Of a DNA stretch of 64,000 nt, positions 19,379 through 27,327 are shown in pieces (the first letter of the stretch is position 1; each line of letters opens with the position of its first letter). The DNA is taken from assembly GCA_025352795.1 (NCBI GenBank), contig JANXSF010000012.1:1-64000 (forward strand), given 5' to 3'. The notes beneath the pieces were generated by a model. It made no database searches. It saw only the letters and a program-made list of their open reading frames with translations, and was not told the DNA's origin. Position numbers and translations under genes: made by a program. The stretch is from Acidobacteriota bacterium. GTDB taxonomy: Bacteria; Acidobacteriota; Terriglobia; Bryobacterales; Bryobacteraceae.

Positions 19379-19849
19379 ATGAAGCTCCTCGCCCCTTTCT
19401 TTCTCTCCTACGCCCACGCCGACTCCCCGGACGTCAACCGCTTCCTCGAAGTCCTTCGCCCTCAACTCCAAACCTCCGCCGATTTCTCCTTCGGCGAATG
19501 GAATGACCACCTTATCCTCCCCGGCGAAAAATGGCGCGAAGAAATTGAACAAGCCCTCACCCAATGCAAATTCGGGCTCCTCCTGGTCTCCCCGCAATTC
19601 CTCGCCAGCGGCTTCATCACCGCCAAAGAATTGCCCGTCCTGCTAGCTAAACCCATGGTGGTTCCCGTCGTCCTCCACCAGATCCTCTTCGACGGTTCTA
19701 TGGATCTTAAAGGTCTCGCCGACCGCCAACTCTTCCGCGATTCCAAAAGCCGCACATTCGATGGTTGCGGACGCATGACCGGACGCCGCGACTTCGTCCG
19801 CGAACTGTTCACCCAAATCACCGCCCTGCTGAAGAAAAACGGATGCTAA
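19379..19849 (+). CDS. TIR domain protein, probable NAD-consuming effector
   Basis: A 156-residue protein that is entirely one TIR domain (TIR_2 type). It has strand A FFLSYAHADSPDV (residues 7-19), a BB-loop-like GEWNDHLILPGEKWREEI (39-56), and the segment LLLVSPQFLASGFITAKEL, where E84 fits the catalytic glutamate of bacterial TIR NADases. I chose ATG 19379 over an in-frame ATG 15 nt upstream because the latter lies on the -10 box. The next gene starts 7 nt before this stop, so the two are coupled. In known TIR-STAND systems the TIR protein depletes NAD+ or makes a nucleotide signal once the NTPase senses infection; that role is inferred here. Confidence 0.85.
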   Translation: MKLLAPFFLSYAHADSPDVNRFLEVLRPQLQTSADFSFGEWNDHLILPGEKWREEIEQALTQCKFGLLLVSPQFLASGFITAKELPVLLAKPMVVPVVLHQILFDGSMDLKGLADRQLFRDSKSRTFDGCGRMTGRRDFVRELFTQITALLKKNGC

Positions 19850-22815
19850 CCAAACTCGCCCTCTCCCAGCTAATCCCGCAACTCCGCGCCAACCTGGGCA
19901 AGAACGCCGCCCACCTGGACCGCATTGTGGCGTTACTTTCCGACGATGGCGAAGCGAATCTGGCAAAGGTTCTAGCGTCGCTCTATCCAGGTGAGCCGCT
20001 GGAAAAGGCACAGGCCAACCTGCGGCAGTTCCGGCTGGAAGTGAAAGCGGCAGCGGTTAAGGCTGCCATAACCATTGAATTGAAAGGCGACACCAAAACC
20101 CGCACGCCCGCAAATCAAAGGTGGGTCTGGTTTGAAGGCGAGGACCGTATGAACCAAAGCGTCGAAGAGTTCACCAGACCCAACGTGGAAGGACCCGAAC
20201 GGCTCCAGCAGGATGCCATCAAACTGGGCACCATTGAGTGTTGCGTCCTCTACGCCGAGGAAGATCAGTCCGATGCCCAAAAGTTACTCGGCTTCCTCGC
20301 GCCTCACTTCAAAACAGGTGACATCAAGGTTTGGACTAGCCAGAACATTCTCCCAGGCGAAGACCCCATCGCAGAGCGCGACCTTGCCCTGGAACGTTGC
20401 GACTTCTCTCTTACCCTTCTCAGCCCGCACTTCCATGCCGAAGGGCTTGACAAGCTGCCTGCTGCGGCAACCACTATCCCCGTCCAACTCCATAGACTCA
20501 CCCCTAAGGACAACAGTTTCGATCACTGCAAGCATCCCAGAGACTTCGCCCTAACCCTCTACACCCAAATCCGCGAAATCCTCGAAAAGCGCCCCACCCA
20601 CCTCGATCAACACTTCCGCGAATTGTCTCTCCACAATGTGAATTTCGTGGAAACCCAAGCCGACGTAATCTCTCTCAATCGCAACTTCGATCTCGACCAA
20701 CATCCCGTGGAAAACCGCCGTGACGCCATCGCCTTCCTCCATGAATGGCTGCAGGATCCCAACGCTCCTCCCTACTGCGCTCTCCTCGGCGAACTGGGCA
20801 TGGGAAAAACCACCACCGCTCAGGAACTGTCTCGTCAACTGCTGGACCATGGTGGACGCAAACCAATCTTTCTCGACCTCCGCTATGTCCGGGACCTCGC
20901 CCCCACGGCTCCTGACCTCGACGAAATCATTAACCGTATTCTAAAGCGCGATTGGAAAGGCGGCGCAGCAACCAAGCCCCCTACGCCCACCGAAATATAC
21001 AAACTGGTGGACCAGGGCGCACTCATCATCTTTGACGGTTTAGACGAAGTGCTAGTGAACCTGCCAGACGCGCAGGGTCAAATGTTCACCCGGCAACTGT
21101 TCCGCGTCCTGCAATCGAAGGAAACCAAAGGGCGTCTGCTCATCACTTGCCGTTCCCACTTCTTCCGAACCATAAAGGAGCAGTCCGCCCACTTCACCAT
21201 GGAGGGTCGCGACAATATCAAGGCCGAAAGTTACCGCGCCCTGGTGCTGCTGCCATTCCGAAAGGAGCAGATTCGCGAATACCTACGCCACTCGCTTCCT
21301 GTGGGCACGGACATTGACCAAGCCTACGCATTAATCGAATCCGTCCACAACCTTCCGGAACTGGCCGAACGTCCGTACACCCTCAGCCTCATCGTGCGCC
21401 AATTCGCCAAGCTCGAACAGTGGAAAGTAGAAGGCCGCCGCATCACTGGGCTCACCCTCTACCGCTTCCTGGTGGAAGAATGGCTGCTGCGCGATCAAGG
21501 CAAGCACCAGATTGTGCCAGACCACAAGCAGATGCTCATGGAATACATTGCCGCTGAACTGGTCCGCTCCAAACAACGCGTCTGGACAGCCACCGAGCTT
21601 GACCAATGGTTGATGGATTTCCTCATGGCCCATCCGCGCATTGCCGCGCATTACGAGGGAGTGAAGCGCGACTTGCTAAAAGAAGACCTGCGCACCGCCA
21701 CCTTTCTGGTGCGCGAAAACGACGGCTTCCGCTTCGCCCACACCTCGCTCCAGGAATATTTTCTATCCGCCTATCTGCGCCGCGCCCTCATCGAAGGCCG
21801 TGCTGAAAATTGGGCCCTGCCGGGGATCAGTAAAGAAACTCTGGACTTTCTCGGACAATCCCTTGAAGAGCAGCCTTCCCAAAAAGCAATCGCCGGACTT
21901 GAAGTGCTGCGCGATACTTACCGGGTCGAAGCCAGCGAATTAGCATTGCGCTACTTCCTCACAGCCCACACCAAGGGCTACCCCGCGCCTCCTTCAGTCG
22001 GCTTTCAGTTGAAGGGGGCCGATTTGTGGGAATTGCAGGCGGATTTCCGCCATCACGCCATATTCAATCTAAGCGGCAGCAATTTGCAGGGTGCGCAGTT
22101 GGGAAATTCGTTCTGGCGCAATTGCCGGTTTGACGGTGTCGATTTCCGCCATGCCAACGCCCCGCGCAGCCAGTGGGAAGATTGCTTCATAGATGGGGCA
22201 ATCTGGGAGGAAACAGAACTCGAAGCCGCGTTATTTCGCAACTGCCCATTGCAACCAGCTTGGTTCGGGGAATCCCGCACCCATCGCGCGGAGTGGCTCC
22301 AGTGTTGGCCCAGCCCGTCAGGTAACCCGGAAGTCAAAGCGTCTGATTCTGTTCAACGCCTTCAACTGGGCCATCAATCCCTGGTGAGGGGCTGCGCCTG
22401 GTCCCCAGACGGCACCCGTCTGCTCTCCGCCTCATCCGATCAAACCCTCAAGCTTTGGGATGCTGTTACGGGAACATGCCTCCGCACCATCCGAATGGAT
22501 GGCCATGTCCTAGGCATCGCTTATTCCCCTGAAGGCACTAGCATTGCCATGGCCCTCGAGGAAGGCTGCATCCGTATCCACGATGCCACCACGTTTGCCG
22601 AGGTGGGTCTGCGCTATTACCACCTGCAAGCGCCGCACGGCGAACCCACTTGGGCCACGGTGGACAGGATAAACAATCGCATCGTTGCCTGCGGCCTCGA
22701 TGCCTGGCGGTCGCTCGGTTGGATTGTGCCAGAAGTTGGGTCCGGCATGCCCCTGTGGCGTCCCGCAGAAGTGTTCAGCCCGCTGCCTGTATTCGAACAA
22801 GAACGAAACCAATAG
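19843..22815 (+). CDS. STAND sensor: helical domain, TIR-like domain, NACHT, pentapeptide repeats, WD40
   Basis: A 990-residue multidomain protein starting at ATG 19843, overlapping the TIR gene. Residues 1-90 form a helical domain I do not recognise. Residues 131-247 form a second TIR-like domain (IECCVLYAEEDQSDAQKLLG), shortened after SPHF so that the catalytic glutamate is absent. Residues 310-650 are a NACHT module with Walker A GELGMGKTT (316-324), Walker B ALIIFDGLDEVL (D398, D401-E402), sensor-like LLITCRSHFF and the NACHT-tail motif FRFAHTSLQEYFLSAYL. Residues 740-810 are pentapeptide-like (FNLSGSNLQGAQLGNSFWRN). Residues 840-915 hold about two WD40 blades (CAWSPDGTRLLSASSDQTLK LWD). 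This is the layout of an immune-type sensor: repeats detect, NACHT oligomerises, TIR recruits the stand-alone TIR effector. Codon use is more C-ending than the neighbours, hinting at transfer. Confidence 0.87.
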   Translation: MLTKLALSQLIPQLRANLGKNAAHLDRIVALLSDDGEANLAKVLASLYPGEPLEKAQANLRQFRLEVKAAAVKAAITIELKGDTKTRTPANQRWVWFEGEDRMNQSVEEFTRPNVEGPERLQQDAIKLGTIECCVLYAEEDQSDAQKLLGFLAPHFKTGDIKVWTSQNILPGEDPIAERDLALERCDFSLTLLSPHFHAEGLDKLPAAATTIPVQLHRLTPKDNSFDHCKHPRDFALTLYTQIREILEKRPTHLDQHFRELSLHNVNFVETQADVISLNRNFDLDQHPVENRRDAIAFLHEWLQDPNAPPYCALLGELGMGKTTTAQELSRQLLDHGGRKPIFLDLRYVRDLAPTAPDLDEIINRILKRDWKGGAATKPPTPTEIYKLVDQGALIIFDGLDEVLVNLPDAQGQMFTRQLFRVLQSKETKGRLLITCRSHFFRTIKEQSAHFTMEGRDNIKAESYRALVLLPFRKEQIREYLRHSLPVGTDIDQAYALIESVHNLPELAERPYTLSLIVRQFAKLEQWKVEGRRITGLTLYRFLVEEWLLRDQGKHQIVPDHKQMLMEYIAAELVRSKQRVWTATELDQWLMDFLMAHPRIAAHYEGVKRDLLKEDLRTATFLVRENDGFRFAHTSLQEYFLSAYLRRALIEGRAENWALPGISKETLDFLGQSLEEQPSQKAIAGLEVLRDTYRVEASELALRYFLTAHTKGYPAPPSVGFQLKGADLWELQADFRHHAIFNLSGSNLQGAQLGNSFWRNCRFDGVDFRHANAPRSQWEDCFIDGAIWEETELEAALFRNCPLQPAWFGESRTHRAEWLQCWPSPSGNPEVKASDSVQRLQLGHQSLVRGCAWSPDGTRLLSASSDQTLKLWDAVTGTCLRTIRMDGHVLGIAYSPEGTSIAMALEEGCIRIHDATTFAEVGLRYYHLQAPHGEPTWATVDRINNRIVACGLDAWRSLGWIVPEVGSGMPLWRPAEVFSPLPVFEQERNQ

Positions 22816-25000: not shown

Positions 25001-25146
25001 TTGATTCACCTCCACCTGGCAGCATTCTAAATCTTCCAGTCACAAGCTGTTTTTCACTCCATAATCCTTTCATTTGATTCGTTCTCACCCCAATGTCATA
25101 ACCAGAAGCTGACGGCAGCAGTGTTAGTATTGTGCCGGTATCGACA

Positions 25147-25356
25147 ATGAAGAAAAAACAATTGGCACAAAGAATTGCCGAACAAACCGGAATTTCCACC
25201 GGCGAAGCTGCCGACGGTTTAGACACTGTGGTGACCGCTATTCTTGAAAAGTTGCGCAAGGGCAAGAAAGTTCCCATGGGTCATTTAGGAGTGTTTCAAC
25301 CGGGCCCAGTTACTGGCTTTGAATTCAAGAAACCCGTAGGCAAGGCTGGCAGGTAA
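25147..25356 (+). CDS. Short HU-like DNA-binding protein
   Basis: A 69-residue HU/IHF-like protein (MKKKQLAQRIAEQTGISTGE, then AADGLDTVVTAILEKLRKGKKVPMGHLGVFQPGP). It has the two N-terminal helices and the first strands of HU (the G-x-x-V-x-x-x-x-L-G-x-F pattern), but ends at about 69 residues instead of the usual 90, so the DNA-embracing arms are short. I chose ATG 25147; a GTG at 25132 would add five residues. The stop is 2 nt before the GTG of the HU-TIR gene, so the two are co-translated. It is likely a dimer partner for the HU half of the next protein (inference). Confidence 0.72.
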   Translation: MKKKQLAQRIAEQTGISTGEAADGLDTVVTAILEKLRKGKKVPMGHLGVFQPGPVTGFEFKKPVGKAGR

Positions 25357-25358
25357 GC

Positions 25359-25940
25359 GTGCCAACGGATAAACAACCAGTTACAATTGACCAGATTTCG
25401 GAAATTATATTGGAGTGTCTGCGCGTAGGTCGGCGTGTAGAGATTGATGGAATTGGAGTTTTTCGCAACAACAACGCAGGCTGTTTTCGATTCCAGCCGC
25501 AGAGCACGCCACGTATTTTCCTGGCTTATGTTGATGAAGATGCCGATCAAGTATTGGCGCTGTACGACATTTTAGAAAGCGTTGGCCTGTCCCCTTGGAT
25601 GGATAAAAAGAAGCTTTTAGCAGGACAGAACTGGCCCCGAGCCATCGACAACGCCATCCGATCAGCTGACTTATTTGTGCCCTGCTTTTCGAAGAGAGCA
25701 TCAGAAAAGCGAGGCAGATTCCAATCGGAACTGCGTGTAGCTTTGAAGTGCGCACAGTTGCATCCGTTGGATTCCACGTTCATCGTGCCCGTACGTTTGG
25801 AAGAATGCGCAGTCCCGGCCGCCATCGCCGAACACATTCAATTCATCGATTTATTTCCAAAGGTTGGAAAGGGAGTGAAGCGGTTAGTTGAAGCCCTGTG
25901 GGAAGCAGGGAATCTCCGCCGTCGAAATCCTGGGTTATGA
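25359..25940 (+). CDS. HU-like domain fused to a TIR domain
   Basis: A 193-residue protein with GTG start, 2 nt behind the HU-like gene. Residues 8-48 repeat the HU core pattern (ISEIILECLRVGRRVEIDGI GVF), the same helix-strand-strand as its neighbour. Residues 51-190 are a TIR domain: PRIFLAYVDEDADQVLALYD, a BB-loop region SPWMDKKKLLAGQNWPRAID, and CFSKRASEKRGRFQSELRVA in which E124 fits the TIR catalytic glutamate. DNA binding joined to a potential NADase would let chromatin or foreign DNA state control TIR activity. I know of no established system with this pairing, so the role is open; immunity or stress signalling is the obvious guess. Confidence 0.78.
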   Translation: MPTDKQPVTIDQISEIILECLRVGRRVEIDGIGVFRNNNAGCFRFQPQSTPRIFLAYVDEDADQVLALYDILESVGLSPWMDKKKLLAGQNWPRAIDNAIRSADLFVPCFSKRASEKRGRFQSELRVALKCAQLHPLDSTFIVPVRLEECAVPAAIAEHIQFIDLFPKVGKGVKRLVEALWEAGNLRRRNPGL

Positions 25941-26362: not shown

Positions 26363-26760
26363 TGACTATTTTGGCGATTGCCATACCCCATGTGAATCAA
26401 GCGAAGATGAGCGCGAACGAAACAAGTGTCGCCAAACAAATTGGAACCATTCACACCGGTCAGGCTCAATATAACTCCCAATTCGGAAAATTCGCTATTG
26501 CCTTGACTGAACTCGGACTGCCACCAAATGGCACTGATTCAGCCACCGCAGCCGACTTGATCCCCCTTGATTTGGCGTCAGGCAAGAAGAATGGCTTCAC
26601 CATTTAATTGCAAGGAACCCCAAGTGGTTACACAATCACCGCCAATCCCGATTTCGACAAAGGCACCGGTAGACGCAGTTTTTATTCTGATCAGACGCTA
26701 GTAATTCGCAATAATTGGGGTCCTGAACCGGCCACCGCATCCAGCCCTGAAATCAAGTAG
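26363..26760 (+). pseudogene. C-terminal part of a pilin-like gene (N-terminus lost to rearrangement)
   Basis: From 26363 the sequence parallels the intact pilin-like gene downstream: ILAIAIPHVNQAKMSANETS, QIGTIHTGQAQYNSQFGKFA, DLASGKKNGFT. A TAA at 26605-26607 replaces the codon that reads Q in the intact copy, after which homology resumes (GYTITANPD, GRRSFYSDQTLVIRNNWGPE, PATASSPEIK) to the stop at 26758-26760. The missing first part, including the class III signal, lies about 28.7 kb away on the other strand at 55113-55205. The two genes were a tandem pair. Confidence 0.88.
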
Positions 26761-26817: not shown

Positions 26818-27327
26818 ATGTGCATCGTCTACCCGTCCACTTTCATTCTGCCCCGTCAGCAACGAGTTCCTCGCCAAGCTAGCAGGGGCTTTTCGTTGAT
26901 GGAATTGCTGATTGTTATCGCCATCATCTTGACCATTTTGGCGGTTGCCTTACCCAAAGTGAATCAGGCGAAGATGAGCGCGAACGAACTGAGTGTCACC
27001 AAACAGATTGGTACCATTCACACCGGTCAGGCGCAATATAACTCTCAATTCGGGAAATTCGCCATCGCCATGAGTGAACTTGGACCACCACCAAGCGGCG
27101 CTGCATCGGCCACCGCAGCCGATTTAATCCCCAATGATTTGGCGTCGGGCAAGAAGAACGGCTTCACATTTCAGATGCAAGGCACCCCCGGTGGTTACAC
27201 CATCACAGCCAATCCCGATGCCTATAACGGTACCGGTCGGCGCAGTTTTTATTCCGATCAGACTTTAGTGATTCGCAATAATTGGGGCCCTGAACCGGCC
27301 ACCGCATCCAGCCCTGAAATCAAGTAA
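26818..27327 (+). CDS. Type IV pilin/pseudopilin-like protein
   Basis: A 169-residue protein with a prepilin cleavage site SRG|FSLMELLIVIAIILTILA: glycine at -1, phenylalanine +1, glutamate +5 and a hydrophobic helix, as cut by prepilin peptidase. The leader is long (about 24 residues: MCIVYPSTFILPRQQRVPRQ and following). The C-terminal half is a small globular domain rich in G, S and T (GKKNGFTFQMQGTPGGYTIT). No pilus assembly genes are in the window. It is the intact partner of the broken copy 58 nt upstream, and its upstream region (ACTCCACGAATTG) matches that of the detached N-terminal piece at 55.2 kb. Confidence 0.85.
   Translation: MCIVYPSTFILPRQQRVPRQASRGFSLMELLIVIAIILTILAVALPKVNQAKMSANELSVTKQIGTIHTGQAQYNSQFGKFAIAMSELGPPPSGAASATAADLIPNDLASGKKNGFTFQMQGTPGGYTITANPDAYNGTGRRSFYSDQTLVIRNNWGPEPATASSPEIK

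What the first reader, a model, noticed from the sequence alone, without database searches (positions are those of the whole stretch)
25147..25940. HU-like gene coupled to an HU-TIR fusion: candidate undescribed system
A short HU/IHF-type protein (69 residues) is followed 2 nt later by a protein that repeats the HU core (residues 8-48) and continues into a TIR domain retaining its candidate catalytic glutamate (E124 in GRFQSELRVA). Seen directly: the shared V/I-x-x-x-G-x-G-V-F pattern, the TIR strands and the tight coupling. Established: HU proteins are dimers that bind bent or damaged DNA; TIR domains in bacterial immunity consume NAD+. Inference: the two HU halves form a heterodimer that senses DNA state (phage DNA, breaks, nucleoid stripping) and gates the TIR.
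Basis: partly seen in the sequence, partly recalled or inferred. Interest (0 to 1): 0.87.

Follow-up and report, generated by a model that had tools for sequence, protein, structure and literature searches.

The report
HU protein paired with HU-TIR enzyme
A family of soil bacteria (Bryobacteraceae) carries, in most of its species, a fixed two-gene unit joining a stripped-down DNA-packing (HU) protein to an HU-TIR fusion that keeps the residue expected of an NAD-destroying enzyme, which suggests a built-in cell-control or self-destruct switch of a design I found no earlier description of.

Summary
The window encodes a 69-aa HU-fold protein (25147-25356) and, 2 nt later, a 193-aa protein (25359-25940) made of half an HU fold plus a TIR domain. 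It is not a one-off: HU-TIR occurs in 55 of 67 sampled genomes of the window's family, which named relatives show to be Bryobacteraceae (Acidobacteriota). All 56 sampled copies, and 79 of the 80 best named loci (the other is cut by a contig end), have the short HU gene directly upstream, mostly overlapping by 4-14 nt. Genomes without HU-TIR also lack the short HU. E124 is kept in 115 of 116 distinct pairs and aligns with E77 of TIR-APAZ, a known catalytic residue. Both genes are under purifying selection and largely vertically inherited.

Neither HU half has the DNA-gripping beta-arm, so sensing bent DNA in the usual HU way is unlikely. The genes do not sit in defence islands: neighbours are ordinary genes, often uvrC. 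Best reading: a core-genome NAD-consuming TIR switch held by an armless HU heterodimer, working like a toxin-antitoxin or regulated-suicide module. NADase activity, dimerisation and trigger are untested.

The parts
25147..25356 (+). HU1: short HU-fold protein, 69 aa; helix 1, helix 2 and first strands, basic tail, no beta-arm
   Evidence: Pfam PF00216 38.4 bits; HU chains in PDB E 4e-5 with the sequence, 7.5e-10 with the family profile; present upstream of every intact HU-TIR locus examined
25359..25940 (+). HU-TIR: 193 aa, GTG start 2 nt after the HU1 stop
   Evidence: Pfam TIR_2 3e-22; AlphaFold2 pLDDT 90.7, pTM 0.83
25386..25505 (+). HU2: half HU domain of HU-TIR (residues 10-49; one helix and a short three-strand sheet, lacks helix 1 and the arm)
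   Evidence: Profile-profile match to HU1 family E 3.9e-8; helix 10-22 and strands 27-29, 33-37, 43-47 in the model
25512..25925 (+). TIR domain of HU-TIR (residues 52-189)
   Evidence: TIR_2; SPARTA TIR-APAZ chains Z up to 19.0, rmsd 1.7 A over 132 residues
25728..25730 (+). Codon of E124, candidate catalytic glutamate
   Evidence: E in 115 and D in 1 of 116 distinct sequences; aligned with E77 of the Crt TIR-APAZ chain
25122..25130 (+). TGTTAGTAT, candidate extended -10 promoter element of the pair
   Evidence: TGnTAnnnT in the last 60 nt before HU1 in 48/115 loci, 2.7 expected from shuffles
25038..25044 (+). AGTCACA, conserved upstream element of unknown role
   Evidence: (G/T)TCAC-type element at -200 to -40 in 66/115 loci, 9.4 expected from shuffles

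Best explanation
HU1 and HU-TIR form one bicistronic, translationally coupled operon of the Bryobacteraceae core genome. The two incomplete HU halves pair into an armless HU-like heterodimer that serves as a protein-protein hub. It keeps the fused TIR domain inactive or controls its self-assembly. When the complex is disturbed (loss of HU1, stress, or an unknown ligand), TIR domains assemble and use E124 to consume NAD+ (hydrolysis or cyclisation), driving dormancy or death. It works like a regulated-suicide or toxin-antitoxin switch inherited with the chromosome, not like a mobile defence cassette. Shown: anatomy, invariant pairing, conserved Glu, vertical inheritance, purifying selection, neighbourhood. 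Inferred: heterodimer, NADase activity, inhibition by HU1, trigger.
For: Invariant pairing and overlap; loss of both together: none of 12 family members lacking HU-TIR has a short-HU match stronger than 1.2e-8, and those are housekeeping-type HU. HU1 and HU2 are homologous over helix 2 and strands and complementary (HU1 has helix 1, HU2 lacks it). The tethered model, read through the HU1 stop in relative L108, folds with pLDDT 84 and pTM 0.81. The TIR is closest in fold and sequence to NADase TIRs: TIR-APAZ, SARM1, AbTir. E124 kept in 115/116. dN/dS about 0.06-0.3 for both genes in close pairs. HU1 distances track HU-TIR distances (Mantel r 0.72 and 0.65) and HU-TIR tracks UvrC (r 0.69, 0/2000 permutations). 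A core-genome NAD-depleting toxin-antitoxin pair is known elsewhere: NatR-NatT of Pseudomonas aeruginosa (PMC11535050).
Against: No biochemical test. HU1 and HU2 could act as separate homodimers or bind other proteins. The tethered model has a forced linker and no interface score was available. Strong vertical conservation is also what a housekeeping enzyme would show. The correlation of HU1 and HU-TIR trees is expected from shared ancestry alone.
Confidence: 0.45

Rival explanations
1. One reading: an anti-phage system in which the HU heterodimer senses DNA state (phage DNA, breaks, nucleoid stripping) and switches on the TIR NADase.
For: TIR relatives in defence (SPARTA, retron-TIR, SAVED-TIR) are the nearest matches; HU1 is basic (net charge +7 in the window and as family median), so some DNA binding is possible; uvrC is often near.
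Against: No beta-arm in either half. Neighbours are ordinary metabolic genes. Vertical inheritance, typically one copy, in 55/67 family genomes, unlike mobile defence genes. uvrC is separated from the pair by a convergent TPR gene, so it is a neighbour and not an operon member.
Confidence: 0.25
2. A housekeeping enzyme or regulator: the TIR acts in normal NAD or nucleotide metabolism or ADP-ribose signalling, and HU1 is a structural subunit, with no killing or defence.
For: Core-genome distribution, synteny and strong purifying selection; a conserved promoter layout.
Against: About 18% of sampled family members lack it, so it is not essential; TIR enzymes known so far act mainly in immunity, virulence or regulated death (background knowledge).
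Confidence: 0.2
3. A non-enzymatic scaffold: the TIR only oligomerises and clusters HU halves on the nucleoid or with partner proteins.
For: Scaffold TIRs such as MyD88 and MAL also match the fold (Z 15.9-16.9).
Against: E124 is kept in 115/116 sequences at the place of the catalytic Glu of NADase TIRs.
Confidence: 0.08
4. The HU similarity of residues 1-48 of HU-TIR is chance and the pair is two unrelated neighbours.
For: HU2 alone scores below the Pfam cut-off, and a structural match of the HU part could not be listed because the TIR fills the tables.
Against: Profile-profile E 3.9e-8; helix plus three-strand pattern with high confidence; pairing kept across about 116 distinct pairs.
Confidence: 0.02

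Closest known systems
SPARTA (short prokaryotic Argonaute with TIR-APAZ)
   Same: Closest solved TIR domain (Z up to 19.0, rmsd 1.7 A, about 26% identity); catalytic Glu in the same place; two-gene operon in which the partner controls the TIR.
   Different: No Argonaute and no APAZ domain; the partner and the fused regulator are HU halves; vertically inherited.
HU/IHF nucleoid proteins
   Same: HU1 shares helix 1, helix 2 and the G-x-G-x-F strand with HU (PF00216).
   Different: 69 aa instead of about 90; the DNA-binding beta-arm is missing; companion gene is a TIR fusion.
CCDC81-like prokaryotic HU domains (PF18175)
   Same: Second-best type of match for both halves (27.7 and 21.0 bits); from memory, proposed to work in protein-protein contacts.
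   Different: Both scores lie below the curated cut-off of 35; no TIR fusion known to me.
NatR-NatT, a core-genome NAD-depleting toxin-antitoxin pair of P. aeruginosa (PMC11535050)
   Same: Chromosomal core-genome pair reported to deplete NAD and NADP; small regulator next to effector.
   Different: Not a TIR or HU system.
Thoeris (ThsA/ThsB) and other TIR defence systems
   Same: TIR domain with expected NAD chemistry.
   Different: No ThsA-type partner in the window neighbourhood or among recurrent neighbours; PADLOC ThsB matches only at E 0.0035.

Membership tests
HU/IHF (PF00216) | HU core: helix 1, helix 2, first strands | tested here: met
   HU1 38.4 bits against cut-off 22.4; predicted helices 3-14 and 18-37 and strands in the relative's model. 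HU2 has only the second half.
HU/IHF (PF00216) | DNA-binding beta-arm | tested here: not met
   HU1 has a median of 21 residues after the G-L-G motif; strands 48-52 and 58-62 are joined by a short loop; HU2 strands 33-37 and 43-47 likewise.
HU/IHF (PF00216) | Dimer formation and DNA binding | not testable with these tools
   A tethered model is compatible (pTM 0.81), but there is no interface score and no experiment.
CCDC81-like prokaryotic HU (PF18175) | Score above the curated cut-off | tested here: not met
   27.7 and 21.0 bits against 35.
TIR NADase | TIR domain above cut-off | tested here: met
   TIR_2 79.8 bits against 28; TIR fold with Z up to 19.0.
TIR NADase | Catalytic glutamate | tested here: met
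   E124 in 115/116; aligned with E77 of the Crt TIR-APAZ chain; E77A is the catalytic mutant in PMC10474274.
TIR NADase | NAD+ cleavage | not testable with these tools
   Needs an enzyme assay.
SPARTA | APAZ domain and short Argonaute partner | tested here: not met
   The protein ends after the TIR at 193 aa; the invariant partner is HU1.
Anti-phage defence system | Defence-island or mobile context | tested here: not met
   Recurrent neighbours are a TPR gene and uvrC; 44 flanking genes of other loci are ordinary; no phage match and no viral-contig match.
Anti-phage defence system | Protection from phage | not testable with these tools
   Needs phage challenge.
Type II toxin-antitoxin | Small upstream gene overlapping the effector gene | tested here: met
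   Overlap of 4-14 nt is the commonest arrangement.
Type II toxin-antitoxin | Toxicity neutralised by the small protein | not testable with these tools
   Needs expression tests.

The most novel reading that the evidence does not exclude
A lineage-specific core-genome cell-fate switch in which an armless HU heterodimer, a repurposed nucleoid-protein fold, directly gates a TIR NAD+-consuming enzyme: a sensor-effector design not among the TIR systems I could find, standing between chromosome biology and regulated cell death.
Probability: 0.3. Interest if true: 0.85.

Novelty: new variant of a known kind. Interest (0 to 1): 0.62.

Why it matters
TIR enzymes are usually tied to mobile defence systems or host immunity. 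Here a TIR with the catalytic residue is fixed in most species of one bacterial family, always next to the same small HU partner. If it is an active NADase it would be a rare core-genome TIR switch, a new way to control a TIR (an HU-fold dimer), and a case of HU being used as a protein hub rather than a DNA clamp. The claim is directly testable with two small genes in a laboratory strain.

Tried and rejected
(1) Defence island: rejected on neighbourhood. (2) uvrC operon: rejected; a convergent TPR gene lies between. (3) The 38-bp upstream element ATGAA-N6-CTTAA-N6-ATTAAAAT-N3-TTCAT, present in about 47 of 115 loci, looked like an operator of the pair; rejected, because it fronts a divergently transcribed small secreted Lys-rich peptide gene and travels with that gene to other places. 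(4) Other effectors fused to the HU2 module in Acidobacteriota: none found; weak matches were mostly ordinary HU-sized frames. (5) Phage and viral copies: none; plasmids gave weaker, mostly TIR-only matches. (6) Structural match of the HU halves to solved HU: not obtainable, because the TIR fills the hit lists; BFVD listed a phage HimA protein weakly (E 0.033). (7) Rfam: no RNA family in the window. (8) Literature: no paper describing an HU-TIR pair was found; the paper on HU/IHF clades that I know of (Cell Cycle 2017, from memory) is not held, so priority cannot be excluded. (9) An alignment mixing free HU1 rows with tethered rows was discarded, because the aligner split HU1 onto HU2.

Full report
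WHAT IS THERE. The window holds two same-strand genes: HU1 (25147-25356, 69 aa) and HU-TIR (25359-25940, 193 aa, GTG start 2 nt after the HU1 stop). HU1 is a clear HU-family protein (PF00216, 38.4 bits against a cut-off of 22.4) and HU-TIR has a clear TIR_2 domain (79.8 bits against 28). The first 50 residues of HU-TIR are weaker alone (PF18175, 21 bits, below the cut-off of 35), but the two family profiles align there with E 3.9e-8. The whole genome holds one copy.

ANATOMY OF THE HU HALVES. HU1 keeps helix 1, helix 2 and the G-x-G-x-F strand of HU but ends a median of 21 residues after the G-L-G motif. HU-TIR starts at helix 2, then strands at 27-29, 33-37 and 43-47. Canonical HU carries a long beta-arm after this point (background knowledge); neither half has it. 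The halves are therefore incomplete and partly complementary, which suits a heterodimer. HU1 has a net charge of +7 in the window and as family median; HU2 has a median of +1.

STRUCTURE. HU-TIR folds with pLDDT 90.7 and pTM 0.83 on an alignment of 60 relatives. To look at both halves together I read through the HU1 stop in relatives where the genes happen to be in frame (first sequence L108); this tethered model has pLDDT 84 and pTM 0.81, with HU1 as helix-helix-three strands. No interface score was available, so pairing of the halves is compatible but not shown. The TIR matches TIR-APAZ of SPARTA best (Z up to 19.0, rmsd 1.7 A over 132 residues), then SARM1 and AbTir, but also scaffold TIRs such as MyD88.

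CATALYTIC GLUTAMATE. E124 is E in 115 and D in 1 of 116 distinct sequences. In the profile alignment to the Crt TIR-APAZ chain it falls on E77. The E77A mutant of a TIR-APAZ/Ago complex was used as the catalytic-dead control in PMC10474274; that the two chains share this numbering is my reading.

DISTRIBUTION. In 299 genomes of the class, full-length HU-TIR is in 55 of 67 genomes of the window's own family and in one genome of another family (G023, 4% contamination, 83% identical to a family member, possibly a misbinned contig). The remaining matches are TIR domains only. A scan of 84,980 species genomes gave 173 relatives, of which the best 80 are nearly all titled as Acidobacteria, Bryobacterales or Bryobacteraceae. 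All 56 sampled HU-TIR genes have HU1 directly upstream, as do 79 of the 80 named loci; the other is cut by its contig end. The usual overlap is 4, 8, 11 or 14 nt. Twelve family members without HU-TIR lack the paired HU1 too; their HU matches are weaker and HU-sized. A phylum-wide search found no intact HU-TIR outside the family.

INHERITANCE AND SELECTION. Pairwise distances of HU-TIR follow those of neighbouring UvrC (Mantel r 0.69, 0 of 2000 permutations reach it) and HU1 follows HU-TIR (r 0.72; r 0.65 over all 116 pairs). This shows largely vertical descent; the HU1-HU-TIR correlation is expected from shared ancestry and is not proof of contact. Close pairs give dN/dS of about 0.06-0.3 in both genes.

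NEIGHBOURHOOD. A convergent TPR gene and then uvrC lie downstream in 22 of 53 sampled loci and 34 of 74 named loci with enough flank. In loci without uvrC, 44 flanking genes have ordinary families (glycoside hydrolases, sugar enzymes, TonB receptors and the like), and the PADLOC matches come from very few members, mostly kinase-type models. This is not a defence island. No phage or viral copy was found. The pair has its own promoter layout: a (G/T)TCAC-type element at -200 to -40 in 66 of 115 loci against 9.4 in shuffles, and an extended -10 in 48 of 115 against 2.7.

HOW IT MOST LIKELY WORKS. Shown: two coupled genes, homologous HU halves without arms, an intact TIR with its glutamate, strict co-occurrence, vertical inheritance. 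Inferred: the halves form an armless HU dimer that holds or assembles the TIR, and TIR assembly consumes NAD+. TIR activation by assembly is established for SPARTA (PMC10474274). The operon logic resembles a toxin-antitoxin pair, and a core-genome NAD-depleting pair exists in P. aeruginosa (NatR-NatT, PMC11535050). I give this 0.45; a DNA-sensing phage defence 0.25; a housekeeping enzyme 0.2; a scaffold 0.08.

NOVELTY. The TIR is a member of a known kind; its pairing with two HU halves, and its fixation in one family, match no system I could find in PADLOC, NCBIfam, the PDB or the open literature searched. The key paper on HU/IHF clades is not held, so an earlier mention of an HU-TIR fusion cannot be excluded. 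I call it a new variant of a known kind.

Noticed in passing
window 19765-22815 (+): A STAND-type protein about 2.3 kb upstream: NNH6 helical domain, NACHT, pentapeptide repeats and WD40, with a TIR-like stretch by eye between NNH6 and NACHT. It does not recur next to the HU pair in relatives as far as seen.
   Followed up: partly
related loci, e.g. L027, L123, L146, L213, L221 (upstream of HU1, opposite strand): A small gene for a secreted Lys-rich peptide (about 50 aa, MKKLMTLMLGLSLVLG...AQ then KKKKGKKKK-type tail), divergent from HU1 in about 47 of 115 loci and elsewhere in other genomes (near hrcA, a microcompartment gene, cymR-cysK). Its promoter carries a sharply conserved 38-bp element ATGAA-N6-CTTAA-N6-ATTAAAAT-N3-TTCAT with roughly 11-bp spacing, usually 0-1 strict copies per genome and none of the reversed control.
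   Followed up: partly
window 25038-25044: AGTCACA element conserved upstream of the HU pair across the family; regulator unknown.
   Followed up: partly
window 26371-26760 and 26818-27327 (+): Two neighbouring near-copies of a pilin-like protein; the first lacks the N-terminal part and is split into two adjacent ORFs, so it looks like a decayed duplicate.
   Followed up: no
L170 (CALQCC020000017.1) and L134 (DYJN01000025.1): Contigs titled Bordetella parapertussis and Arcobacter sp. carry Bryobacteraceae-type HU/HU-TIR pairs, so these assembly titles are probably wrong.
   Followed up: no
L078 (G023:C71): The only full HU/HU-TIR pair outside the family in the class sample; 83% identical to G258, so either transfer or a misbinned contig.
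   Followed up: no
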